DNA from: a bacterium
GTDB lineage: Bacteria; UBA10199; 2-02-FULL-44-16; JAAZCA01
Direction of reading: 5' to 3'
NCBI GenBank assembly: GCA_021810905.1
Contig: JAJZQH010000012.1
Span: forward strand, 10,001-74,000
Length of the DNA: 64,000 nt
The notes under the pieces are model-generated. The model had not been told where the DNA came from and ran no database searches. It saw nothing but the letters and a program-made list of their open reading frames with translations. A program made the position numbers and the translations under genes. The number at the start of each line of letters is the position of its first letter. Position 1 is the first letter of the stretch. Positions 13,558-58,251 of this stretch are shown one piece after another.

Positions 13558-13588
13558 CCACGCAACATTTTTGAGAAGGTGCCGAAAG
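13558..13588 (+). promoter_or_regulatory. Shared-motif promoter of the 13617 gene
   Basis: CCACGCAAC (13558-13566), 14 bases, then GCCGAAAG (13581-13588). The same two boxes with the same spacing occur before several other unknown genes in the window. The downstream box resembles the sigma-28 -10 element GCCGATAA. It lies 28 nt before the start codon. Confidence 0.55.
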
Positions 13589-13616
13589 AAAAGTGTGGGA
13601 AATAAAGGAGGAGATT

Positions 13617-14894
13617 ATGGGCCTTGAGACGACGTTGAATTTTTCACCGTGTTCAGTCTTCGCATCCGACGGGCTGTTCGAGTCTGCCGTGAATGCCGAG
13701 GCGGAAGCAGATGGATCGAACCGCTGCGATGGAGATCAGACTTTCGATGCAGAAGGAGACGCCCCGGCATCAAGCCCTTGCGCTGAGACAACTTCCTCAT
13801 ACTGTTCCGGCAGCGGTGATGCCGCTCTGGAAAAGATGTCGCTGCGCCCGTCCGGCAACGTGCAGCGTTTTGCGACGAATGCCGCTGTCGCGGGCGATGG
13901 CGAACTCTCCGCAGGGAAGACTGAAAACGCCGACGATTTCGGACTCGGAGAACTCGATATCGCCTTCGTGGAAGAGCAGATGCGGCCGGGAAATTCTTCG
14001 ATTGCTGGCTTCCTCGGCCGGGATGAATCGCTCCTCGATGTCCTCCGAACGGACGCTGCGACGCTCAGAGACTACGGCGTTACGCATGAGGAGGTCGCGG
14101 AGCTTCTGAGCCAGATCGTCTCCGGAATGACTGAGGATTATCAAGTCCAAGTCGGCGATGACGAATTCGATGTTCGAGTGACCGTATATAGGGGTTCTCA
14201 AGAATGCCCTTTCTTTAAGCATGGCGATGACGGCAAGCGCGTTCACCTGCAGCCAATCGACATGAGGCTCGATATAGGACATCGCGGTAGTAAGGATTAC
14301 ACGGTCACGAATGTGCGCACTGGACAATCCCTGAACTTCGGCGGGCTGCTCATCCATCTCATCCGCGTCCACAAGTTTTTTGAGGGGAAGGGGACCAGCT
14401 ATCGCCTCCCGCCCGAGGACGTGATCAGATTCTTCGGCATGGAGAGGGAAGCGAGGTCCGCAACGGTGATCGAGACTCCTTCCTATCGCTACGAGAATTA
14501 TGCCATGCGTATCTTCGGTGTGCTGTGGCAAATCAAATCTCTTTATTCTGGAAATATCGACATCGACTCGTTCACAGGGGAGGAGGGCCTGCGCGCATTT
14601 TCCGAGATCGTCGACCAGGTCGCGTTTGTCGCGCCCGCGATCAGGGATAGCTGGAAGCAGCGTGCAGCCGAAATCGTCGATAACCTCGGGACCAAAGACG
14701 AGTCCTCGATTCTCGATATCCTCCTCGGGACCAAAAACGTGTCCTCCAGGACGACTTGGGCAGCAAAGCGCGCGGAGCTGGATGAGTTAGCTTCCGAGAT
14801 CGAGGCGGAGGTGATCCGATCCACGGGATTCGTTCCCCCTCAATATCATTGCAAAGCTACAGCGGCCAAGCTTCCGCCAAATTTGGGAAGATGA
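13617..14894 (+). CDS. Unknown protein, tandem paralogue 1 (C-terminally shortened)
   Basis: I do not recognise this family. The 425-residue protein starts at ATG 13617 behind AAAGGAGGAGATT. It has no Sec signal. Residues 1-100 are rich in Ser, Ala, Asp and Cys and probably disordered; the rest looks globular and acidic. The first about 390 bases are almost identical to the next gene (14959), as is a block encoding LLIHLIRVHKFFEGKGTSYR (about 250-270). The C-terminus stops about 100 residues before that of its paralogue, and sequence related to the missing part persists downstream. It carries the shared promoter motif. Confidence 0.75.
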   Translation: MGLETTLNFSPCSVFASDGLFESAVNAEAEADGSNRCDGDQTFDAEGDAPASSPCAETTSSYCSGSGDAALEKMSLRPSGNVQRFATNAAVAGDGELSAGKTENADDFGLGELDIAFVEEQMRPGNSSIAGFLGRDESLLDVLRTDAATLRDYGVTHEEVAELLSQIVSGMTEDYQVQVGDDEFDVRVTVYRGSQECPFFKHGDDGKRVHLQPIDMRLDIGHRGSKDYTVTNVRTGQSLNFGGLLIHLIRVHKFFEGKGTSYRLPPEDVIRFFGMEREARSATVIETPSYRYENYAMRIFGVLWQIKSLYSGNIDIDSFTGEEGLRAFSEIVDQVAFVAPAIRDSWKQRAAEIVDNLGTKDESSILDILLGTKNVSSRTTWAAKRAELDELASEIEAEVIRSTGFVPPQYHCKATAAKLPPNLGR

Positions 14895-14904
14895 CGAGAG
14901 CAGA

Positions 14905-14935
14905 CCGGTTAGGGAGCAGCCCCTTTTATAGAGAA
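14905..14935 (+). pseudogene. Remnant of the lost 3' end of paralogue 1
   Basis: After the stop at 14894, a 31-base stretch (CCGGTTAGGGAGCAGCCCC and following bases) matches 16269-16299, inside the second paralogue, at 27 of 31 positions. The region between the genes therefore derives from coding sequence lost from the first copy by deletion. Confidence 0.6.
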
Positions 14936-14958
14936 GTGTGTAAATAAAGGAGAAGATT

Positions 14959-16545
14959 GTGGGCCTTGAGACGACGTTGAATTTTTCACCGTGTTCAGTC
15001 TTCGCATCCGACGGGCTGTTCGAGTCTGCCGTGAATGCCGAGGCGGAAGCGGATGGATCGAACCGCTGCGATGGAGATCGGACTTTCGATGCAGAAGGAG
15101 ACGCCCCGGCATCAAGCCCTTGCGCTGAGACAACTTCCTCATACTGTTCCGGCAGCGGTGATGCCGCTCTGGAAAAGATGTCGCTACGCCCGCCCGGCAA
15201 CGTGCAGCGTTTTGCGACGAATGCCGCTGTCGCGGGCGACGGAAAACTCTCCGCAGGGAAGACTGAAAACGCTGACGATTTCGGACTCGGAGAACTCGAT
15301 ATCGCCTTCGTGGAAGAACAGATGCGACCTTTCATCGGACTTTCGAGAGCTGGCTTCCTCGGTCGGGACGAATCGCTCCTCGACATCCTGCGCGCGGACG
15401 CCGAGACACTCAGACGGTACGGCATCACGCATGAGGAGATTGCTGAGCTCCTGAGTCAGGTCGCCGCCTATTCCCGTAATACTGACCATTACCAAGTCAA
15501 AGTCGGTGATGAACGATTCGATGTTGATTTGAACATGTACTTGGGCTCTCAAGAATGTCCCTTCTTTAAGCATAGCGATGATGGCAAATACTTTCACCCT
15601 CATCCCATGGACTGGGACATCGACATAAGACACCGTGCCGGTTGCGATTACAAGGTCAGAAATGTGCGCACCGGACAATCTCTGGAGTTCGGCGGTCTGC
15701 TCATCCATCTCATCCGCGTCCACAAGTTTTTTGAGGGGAAGGGGACCAGCTATCGCCTCCCGCCGGAGGACGTGATCAGATTCTTCGGCATGGAGAGGGG
15801 GGTGAGGTCCGCCACATTGATCGAGACGCCTTCCTATCTCTACGATTATTATGGGGTCGGCGTCTTCCTTGTGCTCGGGAATTTTCTACGTCTTTATGAT
15901 GAAAACAGGGACTCTGGCAGCTTCACGGGGGAGGAGGGCCTCCGAGCCTTCTCCGCAGCCATCGATCGGATCGCGTTTGTCGCGCCCGAAATCAGGGAAG
16001 ATTGGAAACAGCGTGCAGCCGAAATCGTCGATAACCTCGGACCGAAAGATGAATCCTTAAAGGCGAGTTGGGCAGCAAAGCGCGCGGAGCTGGATGCGTT
16101 CTCTTCCGCGATCGAAGCGAAGGTGATCCGATCCGCGGGATTCGTTCCCCTTCGATATTGGTTCGATGGTACGGGTGCCTTGTTTTCGGAAGACGTCGAA
16201 AAGTTCAGGACGGCAAAGTTGCTGAGGGCGTTTGCCGATAAGGTTGGAGAGTTGATGAAGGAAAAAAGCCGGTTCGGGAGCAGCCCCGATTACAGAGAAT
16301 GGTATTCGTTGCTCAATTGGGCTGACAAACAGACCTCCTCCGGAAACCTCTATGACTATCCGTTCCCCGCGGAAATCTATCAGCGCATCCGTGGGACGAT
16401 CGAGCATATGAATGTGGTGATGATAGGAAGCGATTCGTACGAGGATGCCCGCTGGCAGCTGGATGCCCTTCTTGAACAACTGCGAAACCAGGCGGAGGCA
16501 GAACTGTCCGCCGCGCGCCAAGGACTTTCCATGAAAATGGAATAG
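14959..16545 (+). CDS. Unknown protein, tandem paralogue 2 (full length)
   Basis: The family is unknown to me. Start is GTG 14959 after AAAGGAGAAGATT, aligning exactly with the ATG of the first copy. The 528-residue product shares the disordered Ser/Asp/Cys-rich N-terminal 100 residues and the globular core with the preceding gene, then continues for about 100 residues (EDVEKFRTAKLLRAFADKVG onward) into a helical C-terminal region. No signal peptide or membrane segment is visible. Identity between copies is patchy: near-perfect blocks alternate with diverged ones, as expected from gene conversion. No promoter motif is seen between the copies, so the two are probably co-transcribed. Confidence 0.78.
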   Translation: MGLETTLNFSPCSVFASDGLFESAVNAEAEADGSNRCDGDRTFDAEGDAPASSPCAETTSSYCSGSGDAALEKMSLRPPGNVQRFATNAAVAGDGKLSAGKTENADDFGLGELDIAFVEEQMRPFIGLSRAGFLGRDESLLDILRADAETLRRYGITHEEIAELLSQVAAYSRNTDHYQVKVGDERFDVDLNMYLGSQECPFFKHSDDGKYFHPHPMDWDIDIRHRAGCDYKVRNVRTGQSLEFGGLLIHLIRVHKFFEGKGTSYRLPPEDVIRFFGMERGVRSATLIETPSYLYDYYGVGVFLVLGNFLRLYDENRDSGSFTGEEGLRAFSAAIDRIAFVAPEIREDWKQRAAEIVDNLGPKDESLKASWAAKRAELDAFSSAIEAKVIRSAGFVPLRYWFDGTGALFSEDVEKFRTAKLLRAFADKVGELMKEKSRFGSSPDYREWYSLLNWADKQTSSGNLYDYPFPAEIYQRIRGTIEHMNVVMIGSDSYEDARWQLDALLEQLRNQAEAELSAARQGLSMKME

Positions 16546-16632
16546 TCGAAACCGTGTTTTATCTGGCGATGTCGAGGACGTTCGAAACAAAACGAGACAT
16601 GCCCACCTGCTGCGCCAGGCGCTATCGTTTAC

Positions 16633-17445: not shown

Positions 17446-17451
17446 CAAGTG

Positions 17452-17519: not shown

Positions 17520-17528
17520 CAATATGAT

Positions 17529-19976: not shown

Positions 19977-20018
19977 CAGTAGATCCTGCGACTCTTCCTT
20001 TTGAAGGGGACAAGATAA

Positions 20019-30597: not shown

Positions 30598-32949
30598 TCA
30601 CCGCCTGCGAGCCGGTCGGGCGAGCGTTTCCCGAATCGATAGTATTTCTGACGAGTTCAGCCTGTCGGAGCGTTCCCAGCCGAGCGCTTCCACGGTGCCG
30701 GGGAAGTTCCATAACAATATGGCGACAAAACGATAGGCGTCCCAAAACGCCTCAAGCGGATTCCTTGCGCCCAGGGTCGCGTAGTTCTCGCATACAAAAC
30801 GAATCCTGCCTTCACGGCCCGCGTATTCGCCGCTGCGAAGCGCATCACAGAGTTCGCCGGCATCGCGCGCTCGTTCCACGGGTCGTGCGGTTTCAGCCGG
30901 CGCGATTGCAGCGTCATGCTTCGACGTCGACGCAGCCGACGGTGCTGGCACGCTATCTTCAGAAGCGGCCTGCCTCTTCTTTGGAATCTTGATCGGCACG
31001 AGTTTCATGTCGCTGCGTATCAGCGCCATCAGTTCGTCGCAGGCCCTGTTCCTGAAGGCTTCGGCACGCACATGAGAGATGCACTGAAATCTCCCGACCT
31101 CCTCGATCGAAAGCTTTTTCTCCCAGTACAACGTATCGAAACCGCGCAGGAGCCTGATCGTGCGGCGTTGATACTGCTCCAGATGCGCGATGAGCTGCTC
31201 CGGCGGCCTCTCCCTGGAGAGCCCTTCAATCCTGAGCCCGAGCCAGAGCAGATCTTCATAAATGATTTCAGCTCTCATCTGCAGCCGCGCGGCGATCTCT
31301 CGGTGAGACATCCGCTGAACAATGGCGAGATCGTAAAGCACGCGCTCCTCCGGCTTCAGGTTCCCGATCGCCTGCAGGCGTCGTGCTTCGGCGTCGCGGG
31401 TCAACTGCGATGCAGTCGCAGAGTCCGGAACCTCAAGCGGGATGAGCTTCGCGTCGCTTAGTATCAGCGAACGCAGTTCGATGTAGGCCTCATTCCTGCC
31501 AAAAACGCCTCCCCTCTGAAAAACATGCAGTATCCTCCGGATCTCGGTGAAAGACATCTTTTCTCCCCAATGCTGCGGATCGAGGCCGTGCAAAAGCATG
31601 ACCGCGCGCCTCCGATACGGGTTCAGATGCGCGAGCAGTTGCTCCGGCGGTCTCCCTCTGGAGAGCCCTTCCACCCTGAGCCTGAGCCAGCGCAGCTCCG
31701 CAAAAACCCGTGCCGGGTTCATCAGCAGGCGAGCGGCGATTTCCTTTTGAGGGATGCCCTGAACATACGCGAGGTCGTAGAGAGCGCGCTCTTCCGTTGT
31801 CAGCTTTTCAATGACGGCGAGGCGCTGCTTCTCGTTCAGATGAAAGGGAAAAAAGGGCTTTGGCTTCTGGGGTCTCCCTGCGAGCACCTGCAGACGGGCC
31901 TTTGCCTTTCCCTCGATGAACGAAATCAACTGGCGCGATACCCCCATGATATCCGCAATTTCCCGCAGAACCATCCCGGAGCCGCGCAATTCGATCACGC
32001 GGCGCTGCGTCGGCGGCAATGCGAAAAGAAATGGCCGAAGTTCGGCATCAAAGGAAGCCTCATCCTCGGGCGATGCAACAGAACTCCGCTGCATCTCGAT
32101 GAGGGGTTGGCGACCTCTCTCATTTTTCGGCGTTTCGTCCAGGGAAGAGACTCGAACCCTGTTTGCCTCCAGCGCCCCTTCCACCTGCTGCTCCGTCAAT
32201 TTCGATATCGCGGCCAGCTCTTCGACAGAAGCCGCCTGCCCAGTTCTGGCAAAGAAATCGGCGAGCAACTCCTCCAGCATGCGCCCCCTCTTCTGTTGAA
32301 GCCTGGGGACGTTCACCGCCTTATTTTCTCTCTTGAGAAAGTGATTGATGAAATACCGAATCCACCACCCGGAATAGGTGCTGAAGGTAAAACCGCGATC
32401 CGGGTCAAAGAGGTCCAGGGCTCGAAGCAGGCCGATGTTTCCCTCCTGGACGAGCGTATCGAACGAATGCCCGCTCCTCGCATACTCCCTCGCTATTTTG
32501 CACACCCACCCCTGGTGCCGCGCTACGAGCTGGTGGCGTGCAAGCAGCCCTAGCGGGGAACTGCGCTTTGCGAGGAGATAGCGGCCGCGCTCTCGAAAAG
32601 TCTCGATGCTCGGGTGGGAGATGAAAAAACGCGAATCGGAATGACCCTTGACCCGCAGGGGTAGATTCTGGACCGATGTGTCGAGGGAGATGAATCCGTC
32701 TTTGGAACCTGGCGCAGCCTTCGCAGGCGAGCCCGTTTCCCCCGCGAAGGCGTAGGCATCTTCCGAGTCGCCTGCAGGGACGACGACGCCTTCGTTGCCG
32801 CGCACGAAGAACTCGGAAGAGGTCGAGCCCCCCTGCGAAAGATCGCTCTCCGTGTCCAGAGGCTGCTGCGTAAGCTCCAAGCCGGAGTCGAGGGTCAGAT
32901 TCGCAGTCGCCTGCCACGTCTCATTCAGGGATGTCGGATATGCGCACAT
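30598..32949 (-). CDS. Sigma-70-family factor with two extra C-terminal repeats
   Basis: In numbering from ATG 32949 (783 residues), 1 to about 105 are disordered. About 139-215 are sigma region 2: DTLVQEGNIGLLRALDLFDP and GFTFSTYSGWWIRYFINHFL, the -10 recognition helix. About 220-280 are region 3 and about 301-357 are region 4 with its helix-turn-helix (LREIADIMGVSRQLISFIEG). Two related repeats of about 130 residues follow, about 374-507 and 530-656. Each begins with a region-4-like HTH (QKEIAARLLMNPARVFAEL; HREIAARLQMRAEIIYEDL) and continues EGLSR-RPPEQL-AHL. A final unique segment ends the protein. The ATG lies eight bases after a shared-motif promoter; a GTG at 32967 is the alternative start. 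Confidence 0.85.
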   Translation of the reverse strand: MCAYPTSLNETWQATANLTLDSGLELTQQPLDTESDLSQGGSTSSEFFVRGNEGVVVPAGDSEDAYAFAGETGSPAKAAPGSKDGFISLDTSVQNLPLRVKGHSDSRFFISHPSIETFRERGRYLLAKRSSPLGLLARHQLVARHQGWVCKIAREYARSGHSFDTLVQEGNIGLLRALDLFDPDRGFTFSTYSGWWIRYFINHFLKRENKAVNVPRLQQKRGRMLEELLADFFARTGQAASVEELAAISKLTEQQVEGALEANRVRVSSLDETPKNERGRQPLIEMQRSSVASPEDEASFDAELRPFLFALPPTQRRVIELRGSGMVLREIADIMGVSRQLISFIEGKAKARLQVLAGRPQKPKPFFPFHLNEKQRLAVIEKLTTEERALYDLAYVQGIPQKEIAARLLMNPARVFAELRWLRLRVEGLSRGRPPEQLLAHLNPYRRRAVMLLHGLDPQHWGEKMSFTEIRRILHVFQRGGVFGRNEAYIELRSLILSDAKLIPLEVPDSATASQLTRDAEARRLQAIGNLKPEERVLYDLAIVQRMSHREIAARLQMRAEIIYEDLLWLGLRIEGLSRERPPEQLIAHLEQYQRRTIRLLRGFDTLYWEKKLSIEEVGRFQCISHVRAEAFRNRACDELMALIRSDMKLVPIKIPKKRQAASEDSVPAPSAASTSKHDAAIAPAETARPVERARDAGELCDALRSGEYAGREGRIRFVCENYATLGARNPLEAFWDAYRFVAILLWNFPGTVEALGWERSDRLNSSEILSIRETLARPARRR

Positions 32950-32957: not shown

Positions 32958-32988
32958 TTTTCAGCACTCTCCCTCGGAAGTTGCGCGG
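32958..32988 (-). promoter_or_regulatory. Shared-motif promoter of the sigma-like gene
   Basis: On the minus strand CCGCGCAAC (32980-32988), 14 bases, GCTGAAAA (32958-32965). The -10-like box differs from GCCGATAA at two positions. It ends eight bases before ATG 32949, so the message would have almost no leader. Confidence 0.45.
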
Positions 32989-33034
32989 ATTTCAAGCGCC
33001 AAGTTCACGACCGGCCAGGACGCGCCACTTTCCG

Positions 33035-34705: not shown

Positions 34706-34983
34706 CTCCTGCCTCCATCATTTGATTAGACGTCGTTTCAATACTCATGGAGATAAAGGTTGCAAGAGACATTTTATCCGACGCACGTTCACTCTCAGCA
34801 CCCCGAACACCGATGCAAACGCTCTTGGATAATTTACCGGCTGCAAGAGATGTTATTACCGAAATCAGGGAATCGGCCGCTATCACTATAAACCCAGACA
34901 TATCAACAGCTTGGCAGCCAGGGGTGACATTCTTGCGTTGCAGTCAGAGTGACATTTTACCGTTGCGGTAACATTTCATCTTT
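34706..34983. other. Divergent intergenic region
   Basis: The region separates divergent unknown genes. Apart from the promoter motifs at its two sides I see nothing I can support. A plus-strand frame of 74 codons (34747-34971) lacks a ribosome-binding site. Confidence 0.4.
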
Positions 34984-35014
34984 TCACGCAACAATTTCTC
35001 AGGAACCTCGATAA
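34984..35014 (+). promoter_or_regulatory. Shared-motif promoter of the 35031 gene
   Basis: TCACGCAAC (34984-34992), 14 bases, CTCGATAA (35007-35014), preceded by TTTT. The same spacing as for 13617, the sigma-like gene, 42264 and 47398. It ends 16 nt before the ATG. Confidence 0.55.
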
Positions 35015-35030: not shown

Positions 35031-36233
35031 ATGGACAGCTTTCTCACAATCCCTCTGCCGCAGCCAAAGCTCATGGTCGCGGACTATGTTGAGTCTGAAG
35101 GCCAGCCAGTCCCCGAGCACTGCGACTCATGTGACGACGCATTGGCGAGCGGCGACCCGTTCATCGTTCGCAGCGAACACCCGCAGGAATATGCAGGTGC
35201 ATCGGGCCTTCTCACCAGTTTCAAGGTGACCGCCGAACGCCTGGAGGCAGCCCCGTCATATGATGACGCCACAGGCCGCGGATCGGCACTCGACCGGGCA
35301 CTCTTGCGAATCCTCCAAAAGAAGCTCGCCGGCGGGAGCGATAAGGAATTTGAGTCGAATCTGACCGAATTGAGCGGCGATCGCATAGATCAATATTGCA
35401 GGCTGATGAATGTGCGCAGGGATGATTTTCTCAAAGATCTCTCATATTCATACTGGAAACTGCTTGGAGGTTACAACCAGAGCATTATCGCGGACAACGC
35501 CGTGCCGGGCCGCTATCACGTCTTCACAACCGCGGCGAAGGCGCCGTCCGTCAATTATAACTATTGCATGATCGAGGGGGCCAGGGTCATCCTCAGCAAG
35601 GGCAGCAATTTAGGAGGCCTGCTCGACGAGGACGCGATCATCAAGGGCGCCGCGACGTTCGTCGATTATTATGAATCCGTGAGGTGGCTCAAGAAGTTCG
35701 ATCCTTCGCACTGCCCTATCATAGAATGCCAGTGGGTGGACGGCGTCCATTATTTCCTGCAGTATCACCGAACTCGAGACGCTGAACCGGCCAGGTTTAA
35801 GCTCACCGAAGGACGCAAAGGGGACGAGGTCGAGGCATTGTTCGTGAGGGGCGCCACGCCTCCTGAGGGGATCGTCGTCAACGCGGCCATCAGTACCGAT
35901 TCTCAATGGAGAACGAAACTTTTTGAATACGAGGAGGCCTCGTATAATTGGGGTGAGGAAGTATATGATGAACTCATGACTCGGAGGCGCTGCGTCCAAC
36001 TCATGAACAAGTCGTGTCTCGAGGTGCTCGCGTACAACGCGTGTGTGGGGCATTTGCCTCGATCTTTCATGTTCAAACCTCGAATTTCCGTTGTCACAAA
36101 TTTTTCCGATGAATCCTTCCGGGGTCTCTCGCGTCAAGCGGCCGAGGAGACGCGGCGCACGGGAGTGCTTTTCTGTGTCCCGCTCCTGGTTCGCTCCGAC
36201 GGCAGGCGGGCGCTCGCGAGGATACTCCGATAA
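35031..36233 (+). CDS. Unknown protein resembling the PEP-synthase/PPDK N-terminal domain
   Basis: The 400-residue protein has no signal peptide. FIVRSEHPQEYAGASGLLTSF (about residues 43-63) resembles the RS-xxxED-xSxAG stretch of pyruvate phosphate dikinase/PEP synthase ATP-binding domains, and CPIIECQWVDGVHYFLQYHR (about 237-256) resembles the end of that domain (EWxxDGxLYxLQxR). The match is by eye and weak. After the TAA at 36231 the same frame continues with a segment containing GPVLSHWTALKYY that looks like a phosphohistidine domain, so the gene may be truncated. AAGGAT precedes the start loosely. Confidence 0.6.
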   Translation: MDSFLTIPLPQPKLMVADYVESEGQPVPEHCDSCDDALASGDPFIVRSEHPQEYAGASGLLTSFKVTAERLEAAPSYDDATGRGSALDRALLRILQKKLAGGSDKEFESNLTELSGDRIDQYCRLMNVRRDDFLKDLSYSYWKLLGGYNQSIIADNAVPGRYHVFTTAAKAPSVNYNYCMIEGARVILSKGSNLGGLLDEDAIIKGAATFVDYYESVRWLKKFDPSHCPIIECQWVDGVHYFLQYHRTRDAEPARFKLTEGRKGDEVEALFVRGATPPEGIVVNAAISTDSQWRTKLFEYEEASYNWGEEVYDELMTRRRCVQLMNKSCLEVLAYNACVGHLPRSFMFKPRISVVTNFSDESFRGLSRQAAEETRRTGVLFCVPLLVRSDGRRALARILR

Positions 36234-41646: not shown

Positions 41647-42264
41647 CTAGAATTGGTAGCCAAAACCGATAGAACCAAGCATAAGTCGATCGCTACCGGA
41701 GGCAATGTCAGTTTTCGCACCTAATATCGCCAAGAAACCTGAGTTCGCAATATTGCTGGCAACACCGCCCTCTAAAGCGGGCATCACAGATGTCCCAATC
41801 GAAGCATATCTCAAGCCCGGTGAAAGCTGCAGGATCAATGAACCAATACTCGTAGGAATCTGGTAATCGATCTCCACTCCACCAAAAGCACGGACGCGCA
41901 TCTCGGAATAGTTCTTCTCAATCTGAATATACCGAGGAAGGGGCCTCCCCTGAAGATCTGTGCATGCATCATATTCACACGGCCATCCCACACCCGACGT
42001 GGTTTGCCATTTATAGGATGCCTGAATCAGCGTGAAGGTGGTGCGAAACCCCAGACTCAATTTCCCCAAGATCGGCATTGTGCTCGCAACCTGAAAACTG
42101 CCTCCGTAGGCATTGATGCCCTGTTTGTCGTCGCCGGCATTGCCCGTATCAAAGGTAAGGGTCGGCATGACGCCGCCGACCTTTTCGTCTGCAGGCTCCT
42201 GTTTTACGGATGACACCCCTGTGTCAGGCACCCCCAAGGCACCCACTTCTCCTGAGCTCAACAT
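41647..42264 (-). CDS. Beta-barrel-like protein without signal peptide
   Basis: The 205-residue protein ends in alternating polar/apolar strands (LILQLSPGLRYASIG; RLMLGSIGFGYQF) with a terminal Phe, like outer-membrane barrel proteins. It lacks any Sec signal: the start MLSSGEVGALGVPDTGVSS is firmly placed by GTAGGAGA seven bases upstream. Either export is by another route, the signal was lost, or it is not a membrane protein. It carries the shared promoter motif and its own terminator. Confidence 0.65.
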   Translation of the reverse strand: MLSSGEVGALGVPDTGVSSVKQEPADEKVGGVMPTLTFDTGNAGDDKQGINAYGGSFQVASTMPILGKLSLGFRTTFTLIQASYKWQTTSGVGWPCEYDACTDLQGRPLPRYIQIEKNYSEMRVRAFGGVEIDYQIPTSIGSLILQLSPGLRYASIGTSVMPALEGGVASNIANSGFLAILGAKTDIASGSDRLMLGSIGFGYQF

Positions 42265-42306: not shown

Positions 42307-42337
42307 TTATCGTCAAAAAAAAAAAAAACGTTGCGCG
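42307..42337 (-). promoter_or_regulatory. Shared-motif promoter with 13-T spacer
   Basis: On the minus strand CCGCGCAAC (42329-42337), G plus thirteen T (14 bases), GACGATAA (42307-42314). The homopolymer fills the spacer, so slippage would change box spacing and expression. Confidence 0.55.
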
Positions 42338-42463
42338 GTTTTTTTTGAACTTTTTTCGATCTTTCCCATTTTAGCGCCTGTGCCTGAAAAATCCCGTCTT
42401 TGACTCTTAAAACGTCTATCAGTCAATTCATTAGACAACATGCATATCATTACGTTTAATTTG

Positions 42464-42499: not shown

Positions 42500-43696
42500 A
42501 TGGAACTCCAAGAAATTCTGCGTTTGGACCAGCTTGCCAAAGAGGACAGCAGGCGTTACACGAAAAAACGAACCCCCTCGTATCAACGCCTTATCTCCTC
42601 TCTGGGAAGGCACTTCACTGGCATTGTCGGCCCTCGCGGTTCCGGAAAAACCGTCATCCTCAAACAGATGGCAGTAGAACAGGAAGGCGCCTGCTATCTA
42701 TCGCTCGACTCCGTGGGCGAGTTGAATCTGTTTGAGACCGCAAAGACGCTCGTCGAAAAATACCACTTCACGCTCCTGCTCCTGGATGAAATCCATTATC
42801 ACAAACATTTCGAGGGCGAACTCAAGAAGATATTCGACTTCCTGAACGTCCGGGTCGTATTCACCAGTTCCGTAGCTCTGGCCATCGCTGAATCAGCACA
42901 TGACCTCTCAAGGCGCGTGCAGCTCATCACACTCTACCCCTTTTCATTTCGGGAATATCTGTTCTTTGCAAAGGACGCTCTGCTGCCAGAGCTCACAATT
43001 GATGATATCCTTCATCGAAGGTGGACGAGCGAACATTTGCAATGGGGCCATGCGTTTGAGAGTTATCTCAAGGGAGAACTGTATCCGTTTTCTCTGGAGG
43101 AACCTGATGTGCTTCCACTGCTCAAAAATGTGCTCGAAAAAATCATCCGACGCGACGTGCCGCTGATTATGCGGCTTGCGACAGATGAAATAGATACGAT
43201 CTCAAAGGTGACGGCATTCATTGGGAGATCGTCTGTGGACGGGATCAACTTTTCCTCCGTTGCGAAAAATGTGGGAATCACGAAATACAAGGCTGAGCAG
43301 TACATAGAATTACTCGCTAAAAGTTTTGTCCTGAGACCGCTCTTCCCACACGGCACAAATGTCCTTCAAGAGCCCAAGGTGCTCATGTGCGTCCCCTATC
43401 GCCTCCTCTTCAAGCCGTATGATGAAGCGGTCGGCGCGCTCCGGGAAGATTTCGCAGCCGAGGCCATGACTATGGCCGGCAAAGAGTTGCATTACCTGAA
43501 ATCGACGCGTGGAATGAAGACGCCGGATTTTCTGCTCCAAGAAGACGGTGGCGATCTTGTCATAGAGGTGGGAGGAAAGGGCAAAGGCCGGACGCAATTC
43601 AAGGATTTCAGCGCGAAGCACAAAGTGCGCCTGACGGACGGCGTCGACGTCGATGGCGACCGCAGGCCCCTGTTTCTTCTCGGGTATATGGCGTAA
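42500..43696 (+). CDS. ATP-binding protein of the AAA/DUF4143 type
   Basis: The 398-residue protein has Walker A GPRGSGKT (about residues 43-50), Walker B LLLLDEIHYH (about 93-102), the family segment LITLYPFSFREYLF, a winged-helix-like middle part (SSVAKNVGITKYKAEQYI), and a C-terminal nuclease-like stretch (TPDFLLQEDGGDLVIEVGGKGK). It is distantly related to the ATPase at 1637-2779. Like that gene it is apparently leaderless and mono- or bicistronic. Its biological role is unknown. Confidence 0.82.
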   Translation: MELQEILRLDQLAKEDSRRYTKKRTPSYQRLISSLGRHFTGIVGPRGSGKTVILKQMAVEQEGACYLSLDSVGELNLFETAKTLVEKYHFTLLLLDEIHYHKHFEGELKKIFDFLNVRVVFTSSVALAIAESAHDLSRRVQLITLYPFSFREYLFFAKDALLPELTIDDILHRRWTSEHLQWGHAFESYLKGELYPFSLEEPDVLPLLKNVLEKIIRRDVPLIMRLATDEIDTISKVTAFIGRSSVDGINFSSVAKNVGITKYKAEQYIELLAKSFVLRPLFPHGTNVLQEPKVLMCVPYRLLFKPYDEAVGALREDFAAEAMTMAGKELHYLKSTRGMKTPDFLLQEDGGDLVIEVGGKGKGRTQFKDFSAKHKVRLTDGVDVDGDRRPLFLLGYMA

Positions 43697-43706
43697 AGGA
43701 GTATCC

Positions 43707-43871
43707 ATGAAATTTGAGATCAGAAGAGTCAGGGACCTTCGACATCTCGATATTCGCCCAAACGGATTTATATCCAGGTTAAACCGGGCGATAAATACGA
43801 AAAGAACTCCGAGTGACGGCGTCCGCATCGAAATCGCGTACGCCGCTTCCTTGCTTCTGCGGTTCGTGTAA
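43707..43871 (+). CDS. Small basic protein, uncertain
   Basis: A 54-codon frame starts 10 nt after the ATPase stop and has an excellent ribosome-binding site (AAAGGAG, six bases before ATG). The product begins MKFEIRRVRDLRHLDIRPN and is basic. I recognise no family. The good start and spacing favour a real small gene, the composition alone does not. Confidence 0.35.
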   Translation: MKFEIRRVRDLRHLDIRPNGFISRLNRAINTKRTPSDGVRIEIAYAASLLLRFV

Positions 43872-43986
43872 GTTGAGCTGCCGTAACTGCCTCCACATTT
43901 GAACGCACTTTCGCTGGACAATCCCACGCTCTTTGGATAGGCACCCCTGTTCGCATTTCCGGGTTTTTCATGCCGATGAGGTGCTC

Positions 43987-45933
43987 ATGCGGATGACCGA
44001 GGCCGAGCTTCAGGAGATCGCGCGGGATGAAGACGAGCGCTGGCGCTCCGTGCATGCCGCCGTAAAGTCCAGGATCGCGCGCGCGGAGCAGGACATGCAC
44101 GGCGACCGCAAGATGGCGCGCGAACTCACCTCCCAGCTCGTAGCCAGCACGCGCGACGAGGACAAACAGTCGCTCGCCTCCGACGAGGCCGTGGCGCACG
44201 GGCTCTCAAAACTCCGCAAGGATATTGTCGACGATTTCACCGGGCTCGTTCGCCAGCCCTATTTTGCCCGCGTGGTCACGGAAGAGGCCGGTAAGAACGT
44301 GGAGTTCCGCCTCGGGACCGCGAGCTTCCCGGAGCAGCGCATCGTCGACTGGCGCAAGGCCCCCATCAGCCAGCTCTATTACAACTATCGCGAAGGAGAC
44401 GAATTCGACGAGGTGATCCAGGACCGCGAGCGCGAGGGCCGCATTCTCGTCCGCCGCGCGTTTCAGGGCGTCGAGGCACGTCTGAACGTAATCGAGCTGC
44501 CCAGCGGCGTATTGCGACGCGAAAACGGCGCGTGGGTCACAGATCATCCAGACATGATGCTCTCGCGCGCAGGCGGCCATGACGGACACCTGCCGCCGAT
44601 ACTCTCGCTCATCACGCCCGAACAATTTGATCTGATCACCCGCGACGCCCAGCGCCCCGTCATCATCCAGGGCATTGCCGGGAGCGGCAAAACCACGGTC
44701 GCGCTGCATCGGCTCGCGTGGCTCCTTCACGAAGAAAACTCCTCTTGCAAGGCCGAGCGCTCGCTGGTGGTCGTGTTCAACCGCGCGCTCAAGGTCTACA
44801 TCGACACCACGCTGCCGGAACTCGGCGTCGAGGGCGTGGCGATCCGTACCTATCATCAGTGGGTGCGCGGAGTGGCAAAGGAGATCGCCGGAGATCTGCC
44901 GCTCGGCTCGTTCCGGCGCAGCCGCGAGGCGGAGCAGTTCAAATCGTCGCCGCTCTGTCTGCACGCGCTGCGCGACTACGTGGAGAAAAATCCCTCGCCG
45001 CCCTCCGGCGGGGCTGCAGAGGACCTCTTTTGCTTCTTCGCGTTCATGTCGCGGCGCGACGAGATCTGGCCGCGCTGGAACACAGTGCGCACGCAGTTCG
45101 AGGAGCAGGCCGAGAAGCGCTCTTGCGACGAACAGGACGACACGATCCTGCTCAACCTCGTGTACGCGCGCGAGGGCTGCTATCCAGTGCGCTCTTCAAA
45201 AGCGCTCGCGGTCTGCGATCACATCGTCATCGACGAGGCGCAGGACTTCGGCGTCATGGAGATCCACGCGATGCTCGGCGCACTGGATGCGGACCGCACC
45301 GTTTCGATCGTGGGAGACGCAGGCCAGAAGATCGTGATGAACCGGCACTTCGGCGGTTGGGAGGAGCTCTTGCGCGAGGCGGGCTTCGTCGGCATGACGC
45401 CTATCGAGCTCACCGTCTCGCACCGCAGCACGCGCGAGGTCATGGACGTGGCAGCGTACGTGCGCGGAAAAGACAACCCGATTTCAGACGGCAAGCGCGC
45501 GCCGCGCCGCGGTCCCGCGCCAGCGCTCATTCGTGCGGAAGGCTATGAGACCGAACCTCACCTCATCGCATCGTGGATCTCGAAACGAATGGAAGAAGAT
45601 CCCTACTCCCTCTCCGGCGTCATCTGCCGCCTGCCCGCGCAGGCCGAGCACCTGACGCAGGTGCTGCGCCGCATGGGGCATTCGTTTGTGCGCTGGGGAC
45701 ATCGCGACCAGTTCGATTTCTCGCCCGGCGTGACGGTCACGAACGTGCATCAGGTAAAGGGACTCGAATTCCGCAACGTGCTCATCGTCAATCCCACCGA
45801 GTCGCAATACCGCGCGGAGAGCGAGGAAGATCGCAACCTCCTCTACGTAGCGGTCACGCGAGCGGAGCAGCGGCTCGACGTGATATGCGTTGGCAAGCCC
45901 ACGCCGCTCCTGCCTCAGCTGGCGCGGGGATGA
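43987..45933 (+). CDS. HelD-like superfamily 1 helicase
   Basis: The 648-residue UvrD/HelD-type ATPase has an N-terminal coiled-coil region (about 1-75), then Walker A QGIAGSGKTTVALHRLAWLL (about 233-252), Walker B VIDEAQDFG, VSHRSTREVMD and the C-terminal VTNVHQVKGLEFRNVLIV and LLYVAVTRAEQRL motifs. HelD proteins clear or recycle RNA polymerase; whether this one does is inferred from overall layout. ATG 43987 has GAGGT upstream. It converges on the next gene with 7 nt between stops. Confidence 0.88.
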   Translation: MRMTEAELQEIARDEDERWRSVHAAVKSRIARAEQDMHGDRKMARELTSQLVASTRDEDKQSLASDEAVAHGLSKLRKDIVDDFTGLVRQPYFARVVTEEAGKNVEFRLGTASFPEQRIVDWRKAPISQLYYNYREGDEFDEVIQDREREGRILVRRAFQGVEARLNVIELPSGVLRRENGAWVTDHPDMMLSRAGGHDGHLPPILSLITPEQFDLITRDAQRPVIIQGIAGSGKTTVALHRLAWLLHEENSSCKAERSLVVVFNRALKVYIDTTLPELGVEGVAIRTYHQWVRGVAKEIAGDLPLGSFRRSREAEQFKSSPLCLHALRDYVEKNPSPPSGGAAEDLFCFFAFMSRRDEIWPRWNTVRTQFEEQAEKRSCDEQDDTILLNLVYAREGCYPVRSSKALAVCDHIVIDEAQDFGVMEIHAMLGALDADRTVSIVGDAGQKIVMNRHFGGWEELLREAGFVGMTPIELTVSHRSTREVMDVAAYVRGKDNPISDGKRAPRRGPAPALIRAEGYETEPHLIASWISKRMEEDPYSLSGVICRLPAQAEHLTQVLRRMGHSFVRWGHRDQFDFSPGVTVTNVHQVKGLEFRNVLIVNPTESQYRAESEEDRNLLYVAVTRAEQRLDVICVGKPTPLLPQLARG

Positions 45934-45940: not shown

Positions 45941-47398
45941 TCATCGAGCTCCGCCCAGGATTTCAAGCCGTTCGTTCTGTGGCAGTCGCGCCAACAGGGC
46001 CGATTCGGTTGCAACGAATTCCCGACGTTCTTCCTCGCGCATGTGTCGCACGATTAGGGCCATCAGATCGACCGCACCATTATGAACCCTTGAAGAAATC
46101 ACGCCGCCGTCTTCTTTATTGACCGCGACAACGTGGGTATGCGGCTGCACGGCTATCATCAGGACCGGCCTCGCCGCCGCAACCAGGTTGATTCCAAGAT
46201 GAATATAGTTCTGATCGTGCGGCCAATGTTCCATGAGATCGGCAAGCAGCCCAAGATGATCTTCAAGCAATTGATCGCGTTCGACAACGGCTTCTGTATC
46301 CCCGGCGCTTTCGCCGCGGATCTTCTCTATCGTTCCGACTTCTTCGTCCACTCGCTCTTTAAAGGCGCGCTCAAAACGCTCAGGACCTCCCAGACGGCCG
46401 CAATGCGGCGTGTTAGCCGCCCATTTGAGGACCTCCGGGACCATGGCCGCCGCGCTCGCATCCAGGTCACAGATACCTTTAGACCAAATTCTCTCCTGGA
46501 ATCGTTTATGGAGTTCAGGCAAGTATCTCCTGATATTTGAGAGCAGCATCGGGCTCTTCCTCTTATCCAGCCAGCTGTCCTGCTGTTCAGGCGTCATCAA
46601 ATTCAGGATGCGCACCAACAGGTGGACGCCCTCCCTGGGTGGAATCAACGTGAGCCACGTCGCGAAGTTCCATTTCATCCCATCGCTGAGTTGAGACAAA
46701 AAAAGGTGCATACAGGTACTGAAGGAACCCGCGTTTGCATGCGTGTAACCATCCATCAACTCTTTGACCACGGCATCATGATCCGTATTCGGGGCTTCGG
46801 CTATCTTTCTCATGGCATCCCAGACTTCCGAGCGATGCGTTCGAAACTTGCCGAGCCACCCCCGAACCACATTCACCTGCGCAGCGGAATCGAGCTGCGG
46901 CCATTGCACAAGCTCGCGCGCGATCTGTTCCTTCCGCGCCTGGTAAGCGGCCTTCGCGCGCTGATCGGCCCGATGATTTCGCAACCTGAGTCCCGCGATC
47001 CCGGCCGCTAGCAGCGCCAGGGGGACGCCGACCCCAAGGGCGATCCAGTTGAGACTCGAAAGTTCGCCCTCTCCCGTCTGCTCGTTGCGCTCATAGCAAC
47101 CCTGCGACTCAAACGCCAACGCGCCGGCCCCCAGGAGCGCCGATTCGGCCTTTGCGCTCGACCAGCGCACCACATCGCCCCGGCTCGAAGGCACGGGCCT
47201 GTCTCCGAATCTCCGCTGCGCCGCACGAATCGGCTCGGATGCGTCTTCAGCGGTTATGCCAGCTGGCTCGCATGCGACCGGCGCGGAATCCAGGGCCTGC
47301 TCCTCAACGCCCAGATCCAGCACGTCATCAGACGGCTGAACGAGATCGATGGCTGGAGCACACGACGATACAAAATCTGCAATACCGGAAACGGCCAT
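45941..47398 (-). CDS. Unknown single-pass membrane protein
   Basis: I do not recognise this 485-residue protein. ATG 47398 follows AAAGGAGGGG. Residues 1-110 are acidic and Ser/Ala-rich without a signal peptide; a membrane helix follows (LNWIALGVGVPLALLAAGIAGL, about 114-135), then a basic stop-transfer stretch (RLRNHRADQRAKAAYQARK) and a large helical cytoplasmic-type domain (about 160-485). By charge the N-terminus would face out. It carries the shared promoter motif. Confidence 0.72.
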   Translation of the reverse strand: MAVSGIADFVSSCAPAIDLVQPSDDVLDLGVEEQALDSAPVACEPAGITAEDASEPIRAAQRRFGDRPVPSSRGDVVRWSSAKAESALLGAGALAFESQGCYERNEQTGEGELSSLNWIALGVGVPLALLAAGIAGLRLRNHRADQRAKAAYQARKEQIARELVQWPQLDSAAQVNVVRGWLGKFRTHRSEVWDAMRKIAEAPNTDHDAVVKELMDGYTHANAGSFSTCMHLFLSQLSDGMKWNFATWLTLIPPREGVHLLVRILNLMTPEQQDSWLDKRKSPMLLSNIRRYLPELHKRFQERIWSKGICDLDASAAAMVPEVLKWAANTPHCGRLGGPERFERAFKERVDEEVGTIEKIRGESAGDTEAVVERDQLLEDHLGLLADLMEHWPHDQNYIHLGINLVAAARPVLMIAVQPHTHVVAVNKEDGGVISSRVHNGAVDLMALIVRHMREEERREFVATESALLARLPQNERLEILGGAR

Positions 47399-47442: not shown

Positions 47443-47473
47443 TTATCGCCTGCATTACCACTTTGTTGCGTGG
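47443..47473 (-). promoter_or_regulatory. Shared-motif promoter of the 47398 gene
   Basis: On the minus strand CCACGCAAC (47465-47473), 14 bases, GGCGATAA (47443-47450). It is preceded by A-rich DNA (several AAAAAA runs, 47474-47500) that could serve as an UP element. Confidence 0.6.
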
Positions 47474-47622
47474 TTTTTTTTCGATTTTTTTTCGATTTTT
47501 CCCGGCTGTTAAGGATCGGCGGTCATGCGCATTTTCAAGCTGTGCGAAGAACCACGCCGCCGCTTGATCTCTATGCGTTTTAATAGCAAATACGTTACAA
47601 GACACCAGGAGAGGAGAAGCTC

Positions 47623-52803: not shown

Positions 52804-52815
52804 TATATACCTCCA

Positions 52816-53384: not shown

Positions 53385-53392
53385 GCCGCGAC

Positions 53393-54154: not shown

Positions 54155-54164
54155 GGAGGCAAAG

Positions 54165-54959: not shown

Positions 54960-55026
54960 TGCTTCTTGCCCGGCCAGCCGCTCGATCCTGCACGGATCGC
55001 CTGCGGTACAACAGGAGGCTTTAGCC

Positions 55027-56025: not shown

Positions 56026-56031
56026 CCGGGC

Positions 56032-56586: not shown

Positions 56587-56617
56587 GTCATCTGCCTCAA
56601 CAAAGGGCCATACCTTC

Positions 56618-57544
56618 TTAGACAATCTCAATCCTGCGTGCGACGTCCTTGAAAAAATCACGTGACCAGACCTCAAGTGCCTCTGGATGCTGCACAAAAG
56701 GCTCCACTTCTCGCCTGGCTTGTTCCACCGAAAGCGTTTCAATTTTATTCGCGAGCATGGCGTGAAAGACTGCTGCGCTCAGCGGCTCGACATCTTTGTA
56801 ATGCCCGCTCTGCCGCATCCGCTGTTCCAGGTGCGCAAGATGCAGTCCCGGGTGATTGGCAGCGAACCACACGAGATCGTACCAGTCGCGCCCCTTTATT
56901 CGGCTCTTCCATTGCCTGCAGAGGATCGCATGCATTTTTCCCGCAAAAAGATCGGGAAGGGAATATGTCCGCACGGAAAATGGAATCGGATGCAGCGCGA
57001 ATTTTGTCTCAGTGGTAAAACCGGGCGGAGGATCCGTGTCTATCTCCAGCCTGATCTTCACCTGCTGACCGCGAGGAATGGCGCCAACTCCCTCCATGCC
57101 TGGCGTCAACGTCAGGAGGTGCTTCATGGTGCCTGCCTTGAGAAATGCGGACTGAACCGCACTCTCCCGATTTTTCAGCTTCGACGCCACATCGGCGTCG
57201 AAGCCGAATGAGCGGATCTCTGCCTTAAGCGCATCGCCATAGGCCCCGAGATCAAAGCCGGGTATCGGCTTGATCAGCGAAAAATCAAGGTCCTCTGAAA
57301 ACCGATCCAGCCCATGAAAAATCCTGAGCGCCGTGCCGCCATAAAAAGCAGCCTTCTCGAAAAACTTGCTGCGCCAGAGTCCCAGAAGCGCCACCTCCTG
57401 CAGGATCTCCCGCAGCGCGCGAACGGCATCCTCAACGCGGCGGCAGTCGTATCGAGCGAGCATCTGCGTAATGGCCTCATGCATTTGCGCCTCTCTTTCG
57501 CCGCCGTATGACAGAGTGGAGGAGCGTAAGCTTTCGTGATCCAT
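56618..57544 (-). CDS. abiEii: AbiEii toxin (nucleotidyltransferase)
   Basis: The 308-residue protein has the four AbiEii motifs: FYGGTALRIFHGLDRFSEDLDF, then LPDLFAGKMHAILCRQ and KGRDWYDLVWF. This is the toxin half of a type IV toxin-antitoxin module that can abort phage infection. It overlaps the antitoxin gene by 68 bp; the ATG at 57484 (MHEAIT) is an alternative start that nearly removes the overlap. Confidence 0.9.
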   Translation of the reverse strand: MDHESLRSSTLSYGGEREAQMHEAITQMLARYDCRRVEDAVRALREILQEVALLGLWRSKFFEKAAFYGGTALRIFHGLDRFSEDLDFSLIKPIPGFDLGAYGDALKAEIRSFGFDADVASKLKNRESAVQSAFLKAGTMKHLLTLTPGMEGVGAIPRGQQVKIRLEIDTDPPPGFTTETKFALHPIPFSVRTYSLPDLFAGKMHAILCRQWKSRIKGRDWYDLVWFAANHPGLHLAHLEQRMRQSGHYKDVEPLSAAVFHAMLANKIETLSVEQARREVEPFVQHPEALEVWSRDFFKDVARRIEIV

Positions 57545-58127
57545 ACCCTAGAGCGATCCGCTCTATCAGATCAACATCGAGCCCGGTTAACGCGGATTCA
57601 TCGATGCGCAGATGTTTGATGAGATATTCCTGGATCTCCGCCTGGGTCCTGATTCCCGTTCCGCGATCCGCCTGGATCTTGTCCGCCAGCGCCTTCTCAG
57701 GCCTGGCGATCAGAAAAGCCCGCCCCCCCTCGATCTCCACGCGATCCACGCCGATTGGATACGCCTCCGGCGGAATCCCATGATAGATGAAGAGGCCGAG
57801 CGGCGTAGCAAACCGCCTGCTGCGCTTTGTCGTCACCGATGTGACCGCCTCCACCCTCTCAGGAATGAACCCATGGTATGAGAGCGCGTAATCCAGAGAA
57901 ATATATGAAGGGCCATAGATCATGTTGGCCATGATCTCGCGAGAGAACGGCCGCCGCGCGTATGCCTCGCCGAAGATATATAGCCCCTTCTTGATGCGAA
58001 CGATATCATTGCGGCGCAGGAGGCCGGTGATCTTGTCGCGCGGCCGCGCATAGTCCTTGAGCGCATCGAGGAGCATCTGATAATCGAACTCCTCGCCGGG
58101 GATAAGTTTTCGGAGTGCCTCCATCAT
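57477..58127 (-). CDS. abiEi: AbiEi-family antitoxin
   Basis: The 216-residue protein has an N-terminal winged HTH (RPRDKITGLLRRNDIVRIKKGLYIFG) and the AbiEi C-terminal domain (YGPSYISLDYALSYHGFIPERV; RPEKALADKI). It represses the operon through an inverted repeat and counters AbiEii without protein contact in studied cases. ATG 58127 has no ribosome-binding site and lies seven bases after a TATATT box. Confidence 0.88.
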   Translation of the reverse strand: MMEALRKLIPGEEFDYQMLLDALKDYARPRDKITGLLRRNDIVRIKKGLYIFGEAYARRPFSREIMANMIYGPSYISLDYALSYHGFIPERVEAVTSVTTKRSRRFATPLGLFIYHGIPPEAYPIGVDRVEIEGGRAFLIARPEKALADKIQADRGTGIRTQAEIQEYLIKHLRIDESALTGLDVDLIERIALGYGSRKLTLLHSVIRRRKRGANA

Positions 58128-58132
58128 CGGTC

Positions 58133-58184
58133 ATAATATAGCATATTTTGACATGGTATGTCGACATATATTCGACATACTATG
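58133..58184 (-). promoter_or_regulatory. AbiE operator and promoter
   Basis: CATGGTATGTCGA (58152-58164) and TCGACATACTATG (58172-58184) are 13-bp arms with one mismatch around a 7-bp centre. TCGACA (58159-58164) and TATATT (58135-58140), 18 bases apart on the minus strand, give the promoter, so the operator covers the -35 box. Confidence 0.6.
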
Positions 58185-58218
58185 CGATATCTGCGTACAT
58201 CTCGAAAAAGCGAAAATT

Positions 58219-58251
58219 CCACGCAACAAAAAAAAAAAAAAACGACGATAT
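58219..58251 (+). promoter_or_regulatory. Shared-motif promoter with 15-A spacer
   Basis: CCACGCAAC (58219-58227), fifteen A plus C (16 bases), GACGATAT (58244-58251). The spacer is two bases longer than in the other copies, and the extra bases are in the homopolymer. Confidence 0.5.

What the first reader, a model, noticed from the sequence alone, without database searches (positions are those of the whole stretch)
13558..58251. A shared two-box promoter motif marks a scattered set of unknown genes
CC(A/G)CGCAAC and a box like G(C/A/G)CGATAA occur 14 bases apart upstream of genes 13617, 32949, 35031, 42264 and 47398 (motifs at 13558-13588, 32958-32988, 34984-35014, 42307-42337, 47443-47473), and 16 apart at 58219-58251. 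Weaker forms precede 63007 and 34705. All sit just upstream of the start codon on the correct strand. The genes are not related in sequence, are mostly of unknown function, and tend to have disordered, Ser/Asp-rich N-termini without Sec signals. The -10 box resembles that of sigma-28, the -35 box does not. A regulon under an alternative sigma factor is the simplest reading; secreted or effector-like products are a guess.
Basis: partly seen in the sequence, partly recalled or inferred. Interest (0 to 1): 0.82.

Follow-up and report, generated by a model that had tools for sequence, protein, structure and literature searches.

The report
Secretion-system sigma factor's phylum-wide gene switch
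The repeated two-part DNA signal looks like an on-switch for a large set of mostly unknown genes, probably read by a flagellum-type control protein that now sits among the genes of a protein-export machine, which would help to find what this uncultivated group of bacteria exports.

Summary
The motif is real. CGCAAC-N16-CGATAA occurs 661 times in 46 of 46 genomes of the window's phylum-level clade, against 9 for the reversed pattern. In 334 kb of own-genome sequence all 17 sites of 18 bits or more are intergenic, 14 lie within 150 bp upstream of a same-strand start, and the control gives none. The extended form GCAACTTT-N11-GCCGATAA has the layout of a sigma-28 promoter with another -35 box; the TAAA form is near background (35 vs 23). 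The window's own sigma-70-family protein has no ortholog in 45 relatives. The likely reader is a FliA-like sigma inside a non-flagellar type III secretion (T3SS) cluster: in 42 of 46 genomes, beside an SctI-like gene in 26 of 30 loci, with a changed -35 helix. I estimate 100-150 sites per genome. Products are mostly unknown, with acidic, Lys/Arg-poor, Ser/Thr-richer N-termini, suggesting T3SS substrates; 16 of 87 look Sec/membrane-targeted. Promoter reading and export are inferred. Closest analogue: HrpL/hrp box, whose sigma is of another class.

The parts
13553..13588 (+). T3SS-sigma-type promoter (A/T block, CCACGCAAC, -10 GCCGAAAG)
   Evidence: matrix 25.4, spacing 0
13617..14894 (+). unknown protein, 425 aa, acidic Ser-rich N-terminus
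   Evidence: box 28 bp upstream; no Pfam family
14959..16545 (+). paralog of 13617, 528 aa, possibly co-transcribed; no box of its own
   Evidence: 300 bp at 14942-15241 98% identical to 13600-13899; no site of 15 bits or more in front of it
32958..32993 (-). weak box (CCGCGCAAC ... GCTGAAAA)
   Evidence: matrix 16.7; none of the reversed control reaches 12 at this spacing
30598..32949 (-). sigma-70-family protein, 783 aa, with Ser/Asp-rich N-terminus and repeated C-terminal HTH-like segments (my reading); not the likely reader of the box
   Evidence: Pfam Sigma70_r2, r4, r4_2; no ortholog in the 45 other genomes, only sigma-domain matches, best near 30% over residues about 115-400
34979..35014 (+). 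promoter box
   Evidence: matrix 30.6
35031..36233 (+). unknown protein, 400 aa
   Evidence: box 16 bp upstream; no Pfam family
42307..42343 (-). promoter box, spacer one base longer
   Evidence: matrix 37.1 at +1 spacing
41647..42264 (-). unknown protein, 205 aa
   Evidence: box 42 bp upstream; no Pfam family
47443..47478 (-). promoter box, exact core
   Evidence: matrix 35.3; exact pattern match
45941..47398 (-). unknown protein, 485 aa, acidic N-terminus
   Evidence: box 44 bp upstream; no Pfam family
58214..58251 (+). promoter box, spacer two bases longer (A15 run)
   Evidence: matrix 25.4 at +2 spacing
58302..58757 (+). unknown protein, 151 aa
   Evidence: box 50 bp upstream; no Pfam family
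62962..62999 (+). possible weak box, spacer two bases longer
   Evidence: matrix 16.4; at this spacing no reversed-control hit of 14 or more in 334 kb, 2 of 12 or more
63007..63966 (+). putative metallopeptidase-like protein, 319 aa
   Evidence: Peptidase_Mx1 below its cut-off, E 0.00096; residues 189-301 28% identical to part of the box-linked gene in L021; another similar stretch in L001 on the other strand

Best explanation
The two boxes are the -35 and -10 of a sigma-28-class promoter with a changed -35 (GCAAC in place of TAAA; layout A/T block - TC[A/G]CGCAACTTTTT - about 8 free bases - GCCGATAA). They are most likely read by a FliA-like sigma factor (G000:C15:207486-208355) encoded just before the SctI-like gene of a non-flagellar type III secretion cluster. 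When that sigma is active it switches on a dispersed regulon of about 100-150 sites, many of whose products I take to be T3SS-exported, together with Sec-exported surface proteins. The window's box-linked genes are members. Shown by computation: the motif, its position, its conservation in the clade, the sigma's place in the T3SS cluster and its changed -35 helix. Inferred: that this sigma reads the box, when it is active, and that the products are exported.
For: Motif: 661 vs 9 reversed in 46 genomes; 17 of 17 sites intergenic. By my reading one FliA/WhiG-like sigma among six Sigma70_r2 proteins of the own genome (the only own match to it at E 0.001). It sits in a cluster with SctJ (YscJ_FliF 2.6e-28), SctN, a FliM-like SctQ, SctR (over its cut-off), SctS, SctT and SycD-like genes. 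SctV, over the hrcV cut-off and under the FlhA cut-off, is the only FHIPEP of the genome. T3SS-type sigma in 42 of 46 genomes (43 matches less G041, whose only match is its flagellar FliA); SctI-like neighbour in 26 of 30 loci. Four of 46 genomes carry a second FliA, an FHIPEP of 856 bits or more and FlgM together; their FliA has TESRVSQIH (one TESRICQIH) and FliA of PDB 6pmi GESRVSQLH, whereas the T3SS type has SKSW[TV][SC]R[LM]H in 30 of 30 rows. The T3SS type is one clade beside flagellar FliA (99/98). In G039 a perfect TAAA-N15-GCCGATAA lies upstream of flgM. TAAA form class-wide 35 vs 23. Products: residues 2-30 Lys+Arg 0.067 vs 0.140 (p 5e-12), Ser+Thr 0.146 vs 0.108, net charge of the first 50 residues -5.0 vs -0.25 (71 vs 190 proteins).
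Against: No transcription or binding data. Four genomes (G001, G016, G029, G041) have the motif (22, 1, 4, 15) but no T3SS-type sigma was found; gaps in the MAGs are possible, not shown. The sigma is below the TIGR02479 cut-off (137 vs 190 bits). SctN scores best as flagellar FliI clade 2 (over that cut-off and over SctN's), SctQ best as FliM, SctT and SycD are below their cut-offs: the machine is flagellum-like in part. No fixed-spacing box of 15 bits or more in the 60 kb around the T3SS cluster. Only 1 of 4 flgM loci has the canonical box. 16 of 87 products look Sec/membrane-targeted and Leu depletion, which I would expect of T3SS signals (recalled), did not reach p 0.001. In relatives 4 of 22 products have the acidic N-terminus, and an ORF within 200 bp was found for 22 of 27 sites forward but also for 13 in the opposite direction. 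I saw no secretin in the T3SS stretches but did not search for one, so a full injectisome is not shown.
Confidence: 0.8

Rival explanations
1. The box is read by the sigma-70-family protein encoded in the window itself (30598-32949), an autoregulated alternative sigma.
For: It is a real sigma-70-family protein and has a weak box just upstream.
Against: No ortholog in the 45 other genomes while the box is in all 46. Its own box is the weakest of the six. Of the 23 NCBIfam families it matched at E 1e-15, only the general sigma-70 superfamily is over its cut-off.
Confidence: 0.06
2. The box is a binding site of an activator or repressor (two-box operator) rather than a promoter.
For: No start-site data exist; an A/T block and a T-run flank the -35 box.
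Against: In 334 kb, 17 sites of 18 bits at one spacing against 0 to 3 at each of five other spacings; fixed orientation to the downstream gene; GCCGATAA as in sigma-28 promoters (recalled consensus); median 47 bp to the start codon; a matching sigma with a changed -35 helix.
Confidence: 0.08
3. The sigma regulon is real but not mainly about T3SS export: a surface, cell-envelope or developmental regulon in the manner of WhiG, with the T3SS linkage inherited.
For: Box-linked subtilases, TSP3-repeat proteins, lipoprotein-like starts and a murein transglycosylase; relatives show fewer acidic N-termini and, by my reading, more Sec-type products.
Against: The sigma stays next to the SctI-like gene across the clade; in the own genome 71 of 87 products lack a Sec/TM start by a crude rule and their N-termini are strongly shifted.
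Confidence: 0.3

Closest known systems
HrpL / hrp box regulon of Pseudomonas syringae (PMC3879358, abstract and outline read; ECF class from the abstract of PMC5263251 in a search listing)
   Same: One alternative sigma tied to the T3SS recognises a two-box promoter in front of effector and non-effector genes scattered over the genome.
   Different: HrpL is an ECF sigma and drives the T3SS structural genes too; here the sigma is FliA-like, the box is different, and no box of 15 bits was found in 60 kb around the structural cluster.
Flagellar FliA (sigma-28) / FlgM circuit (PMC4563271, passages read)
   Same: Related sigma, same -10 and spacing, sigma tied to a type III export machine, presumed late-gene role. 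The same review reports FliA consensus sequences in certain Yersinia injectisome genes, with a negative and seemingly indirect effect.
   Different: -35 is GCAAC not TAAA; changed -35 helix; FlgM and a flagellar-score FHIPEP in only 4 of 46 genomes; flagellin was not searched for; target genes are not flagellar by the family scans.
'Myxo' non-flagellar T3SS (PMC3459982, section 9 and passages read)
   Same: Deltaproteobacterial NF-T3SS close to the flagellar root; here SctQ and SctN score best as FliM and FliI.
   Different: The text read holds no occurrence of 'sigma' or 'FliA'; whether this T3SS belongs to that group was not tested.
Chlamydial sigma-54 control of T3SS effectors (PMC7482065, abstract in a search listing)
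   Same: An alternative sigma linked to effector expression.
   Different: Sigma-54 is an unrelated sigma class.

Membership tests
FliA/WhiG sigma family (TIGR02479) | full-length match over the curated cut-off (189.6 bits) | tested here: not met
   137.4 bits, E 6e-40, profile 1-219 of 224: a diverged relative, not filed as a member
FliA/WhiG sigma family (TIGR02479) | groups with flagellar FliA against RpoD/RpoH and other sigmas | tested here: met
   36 rows (31 T3SS-type, 4 flagellar, L216) on one side, 99/97; only four own-genome outgroups, several long branches
canonical sigma-28 promoter | -10 GCCGATAA at the sigma-28 spacing | tested here: met
   54 sites: G in 35 and C in 31 before the fixed CGATAA; T in 30, 33 and 32 at the three positions after GCAAC; consensus recalled
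canonical sigma-28 promoter | -35 TAAA | tested here: not met
   GCAAC instead; TAAA form 35 vs 23 in 46 genomes
FlgM-gated flagellar late regulon | FlgM anti-sigma | tested here: not met
   PF04316 in 4 of 46 genomes, not in the own genome
T3SS sigma regulon of the HrpL kind | sigma encoded in the T3SS cluster | tested here: met
T3SS sigma regulon of the HrpL kind | sigma is of the ECF class | tested here: not met
   best specific NCBIfam match is FliA_WhiG (E 6e-40); the general sigma70-ECF superfamily model also matches (E 1e-28, over its cut-off)
T3SS sigma regulon of the HrpL kind | box-linked products are exported by the T3SS | not testable with these tools
   only N-terminal composition
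non-flagellar T3SS | export-gate proteins over the non-flagellar cut-offs and under the flagellar ones | tested here: met
   SctV 792.7 vs 692.25 (FlhA 692.6 vs 772.1); SctR 238.9 vs 208.6 (FliP 201.8 vs 217.45); SctN is over both its own and a FliI cut-off
non-flagellar T3SS | secretin, needle, translocon | not tested
   no search made

The most novel reading that the evidence does not exclude
The flagellar late-gene circuit was taken over with the export machine when the flagellum gave rise to this T3SS: a FliA-like sigma, re-aimed to a new -35 box by a changed recognition helix, stays in the T3SS cluster across a whole phylum-level clade and is freed by export of an unrecognised FlgM-like anti-sigma (perhaps the poorly conserved 110-142 aa ORF upstream of it, seen in 11 of 15 intervals examined), so that completion of the machine or contact turns on a regulon of about 100-150 sites.
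Probability: 0.3. Interest if true: 0.87.

Novelty: new variant of a known kind. Interest (0 to 1): 0.74.

Why it matters
If right, one DNA pattern lists candidate exported and surface proteins of an uncultivated phylum-level clade (46 genomes held here), most without a known family. It would also be a case of flagellar gene control carried over into a non-flagellar secretion system, with two sigma-28 relatives coexisting in flagellated members, which makes the change of sigma specificity directly testable. The listings of my library searches showed no report of a FliA-class sigma dedicated to a T3SS effector regulon and none on T3SS in this clade (of the 13 papers naming UBA10199 I opened one, which has no mention of type III secretion). 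Most subscription papers are not in that library.

Tried and rejected
Box before 34705: rejected, score -2.6. Canonical sigma-28 sites: near background class-wide, except possibly G041 (8 vs 2). FlgM homology of the small ORF upstream of the sigma: 7 of the ORFs scanned, no FlgM match; it stays a positional guess. MZA anti-phage sigma (MzaA) for the window sigma: 110.9 bits against a cut-off of 800, only its sigma domain matches, and none of six nearby proteins scanned matched an MZA component. A phylum-wide pattern search returned the same 46 genomes as the class, so no outgroup was tested; the reversed pattern is the only null for the motif. The SctI-like label rests on position and the conserved C-terminus; 2 of 11 members match PF17001, best E 0.0037. 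Gene calls come from a home-made caller trained on the window; it is poor on AT-rich relatives, so relatives were tested with a simpler ORF rule. The spacing tally (96 of 102) is biased, because those stretches were fetched by a fixed-spacing search; I use instead. In one search, 82 of the 85 called box-linked proteins were used (L022, L144, L154 left out) plus three window proteins. In one search and the tree, 11 further sigma matches had no locus and were not aligned.

No structure prediction or fold search was run.
Full report
Observation. Four have one spacing, one has a spacer one base longer and one two bases longer. Two (13617, 32949) have imperfect -10 boxes. The 'weaker form' before 63007 scores 16.4 and may be real; the one before 34705 is not a site.

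Is it more than chance? In the whole own genome (2.98 Mb, 99.5% complete) CCRCGCAAC-N13-17-GATAA has 14 exact matches against 0 for the reversed pattern; a fixed-spacing form with up to 2 mismatches has 109 against 8. I built a 36-position matrix from 54 of the 60 exact-core sites, chosen by sequence alone, and scanned 334 kb: the window, 110 kb around T3SS genes and eight arbitrary 20-kb stretches. At 18 bits or more there are 17 sites (3 in the window) and no reversed-control hit; 17 of 17 are intergenic (86% of this sequence is coding) and 14 of 17 lie within 150 bp upstream of a same-strand start. Some of these sites are also in the training set, but training ignored gene positions. Other spacings (-2 to +3) give 0 to 3 such sites each. 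The eight arbitrary stretches hold 8 sites in 160 kb, about 150 per genome. In all held own-genome sequence, which was partly fetched around hits, there are 102 sites of 20 bits or more, 87 with a called start within 200 bp (median 47), 3 inside same-strand genes and 2 overlapping antisense genes.

Shape. The logo reads A/T block (about -8 to -4 relative to CGCAAC), TC[A/G]CGCAAC, TTTTT, about 8 free bases, GCCGATAA. Read as GCAACTTT-N11-GCCGATAA it has the layout of the sigma-28 consensus TAAAGTTT-N11-GCCGATAA (recalled) with another -35.

Distribution. CGCAAC-N16-CGATAA occurs in 46 of 46 held genomes of the class, which are also all that the phylum search returned: 661 matches against 9 reversed. 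TAAA-N15-GCCGATAA gives 35 against 23. The six named relatives found are Deltaproteobacteria MAGs and one labelled Bdellovibrio, two with groundwater and one with mines in the title. I believe the clade is GTDB UBA10199; that is recalled and not confirmed by a tool.

Which sigma? The own genome has six Sigma70_r2 proteins: by my reading RpoD, an RpoH-like protein, an ECF, the window protein, one at C18:9.2 kb, and one FliA/WhiG-like at C15:207486-208355. The window protein has no ortholog in 45 other genomes. The FliA-like one has matches in 43 of 46; I count 42 because the only match in G041 is its flagellar FliA. Thirty of these were aligned, plus G042. It lies in a T3SS cluster: SctJ, small ORFs, sigma, SctI-like, a 354-aa protein, SctL-like, SctN, SctO-like, SctP-like, SctQ, SctR, SctS, SctT, SycD-like chaperones (the SctI, L, O and P labels are my reading of position and sequence). 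A like order is seen in named MAG contigs L106 and L110, and an SctI-like gene is found beside the sigma in 26 of 30 loci. SctV is on contig C18, the only FHIPEP of the genome. SctV and SctR pass the non-flagellar cut-offs and miss the flagellar ones, but SctN scores best as flagellar FliI clade 2 and SctQ as FliM, so this is a flagellum-like kind of T3SS; secretin and needle were not searched for. Two of the 46 genomes (G003, G008) showed no FHIPEP.

Specificity. Four of 46 genomes (G030, G031, G039, G041) carry an FHIPEP of 856 bits or more, FlgM, and a second FliA, and no other genome has such an FHIPEP or FlgM. Their FliA has the -35 helix TESR[VI][SC]QIH; FliA of PDB 6pmi (E. coli, recalled) has GESRVSQLH and the sigma of 6pfj (WhiG, recalled) TESRVSQIH. 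The T3SS type has LSKSW[TV][SC]R[LM]H in 30 of 30 rows, plus LSKSWISRLH in G042. The T3SS type forms one clade beside the flagellar one (99/98, whose outgroups are long-branched). One of the four flgM loci (G039) has a perfect TAAA-type box upstream. A further FliA-like protein in G040 (L216) has LSKSWASRLH; the tree sets it inside the T3SS clade on a very long branch, so its place is unsure. So two sigma-28 relatives with different -35 helices coexist in flagellated members, and the box with the changed -35 is the abundant one.

Products. 87 box-linked proteins form 72 similarity clusters. Among 85 scanned, the commonest Pfam family (Peptidase_S8) is in 3. 16 of 87 have a Sec/TM-like start by a crude rule, against 65 of 255 background proteins. 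Among the rest (71 vs 190) residues 2-30 have half the Lys+Arg and more Ser+Thr, and the first 50 residues are much more acidic; Leu does not differ at p 0.001. Low charge and more Ser/Thr are what I would expect of T3SS signals (recalled); the acidity and the unchanged Leu are not. In relatives only 4 of 22 products show the acidity and many, by my reading, look like lipoproteins or surface proteins. The regulon is therefore mixed, as HrpL regulons are (PMC3879358, abstract).

Mechanism and rivals. Best reading: a T3SS-linked, FliA-like sigma with changed -35 specificity drives a dispersed regulon of candidate substrates and surface proteins. Binding, timing and export are inferred. How the sigma is held in check is open: no FlgM was found in 42 of 46 genomes, but a poorly conserved ORF of 110-142 aa starts within about 50 bp after p140 and upstream of the sigma in 11 of the 15 intervals I examined; two of these hold the same sequence, and in one the sigma is 2.3 kb further on. 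Against: four genomes have the box but no such sigma found; no box at the T3SS structural cluster; the sigma misses the TIGR02479 cut-off.

Novelty. Library searches for a FliA-class sigma in T3SS effector control returned nothing on point in their listings. A review passage says that certain Yersinia injectisome genes contain FliA consensus sequences, with a negative, seemingly indirect effect of FliA (PMC4563271). The kind of system (sigma-controlled T3SS regulon) is known; this sigma class, box and clade-wide linkage look new.

Noticed in passing
30598-32949 (-): Orphan 783-aa sigma-70-family protein with an effector-like Ser/Asp-rich N-terminus, a weak T3SS-type box and repeated HTH-like C-terminal segments; no ortholog in 45 relatives. 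A second-tier sigma and even an exported one are both open.
   Followed up: partly
13600-13899 and 14942-15241: Tandem paralogs with 300 bp 98% identical while later stretches are 77-80%: recent duplication or gene conversion of the N-terminal module.
   Followed up: partly
L035 (G000:C18:8999-9928): Another sigma-like protein with an acidic Ser/Asp-rich N-terminus and no box upstream (best score below 1).
   Followed up: partly
L069:15895-16260 (G000:C15:206895-207260): Small poorly conserved ORF just before the T3SS sigma, positionally matched in 11 of 15 intervals examined; candidate anti-sigma.
   Followed up: partly
L216 (G040:C241): A further FliA-like protein with LSKSWASRLH -35 helix on a very long branch.
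   Followed up: no
42500-45933 (+): ATPase matching the PDC-S01 candidate-defence models (E 1e-20) with a UvrD-like helicase downstream (GajB/NERD-helicase-like); possible defence genes beside the box-linked genes.
   Followed up: no
G041: Box present 15 vs 0 and canonical TAAA sites 8 vs 2, with a flagellar FliA but no T3SS-type sigma found.
   Followed up: no
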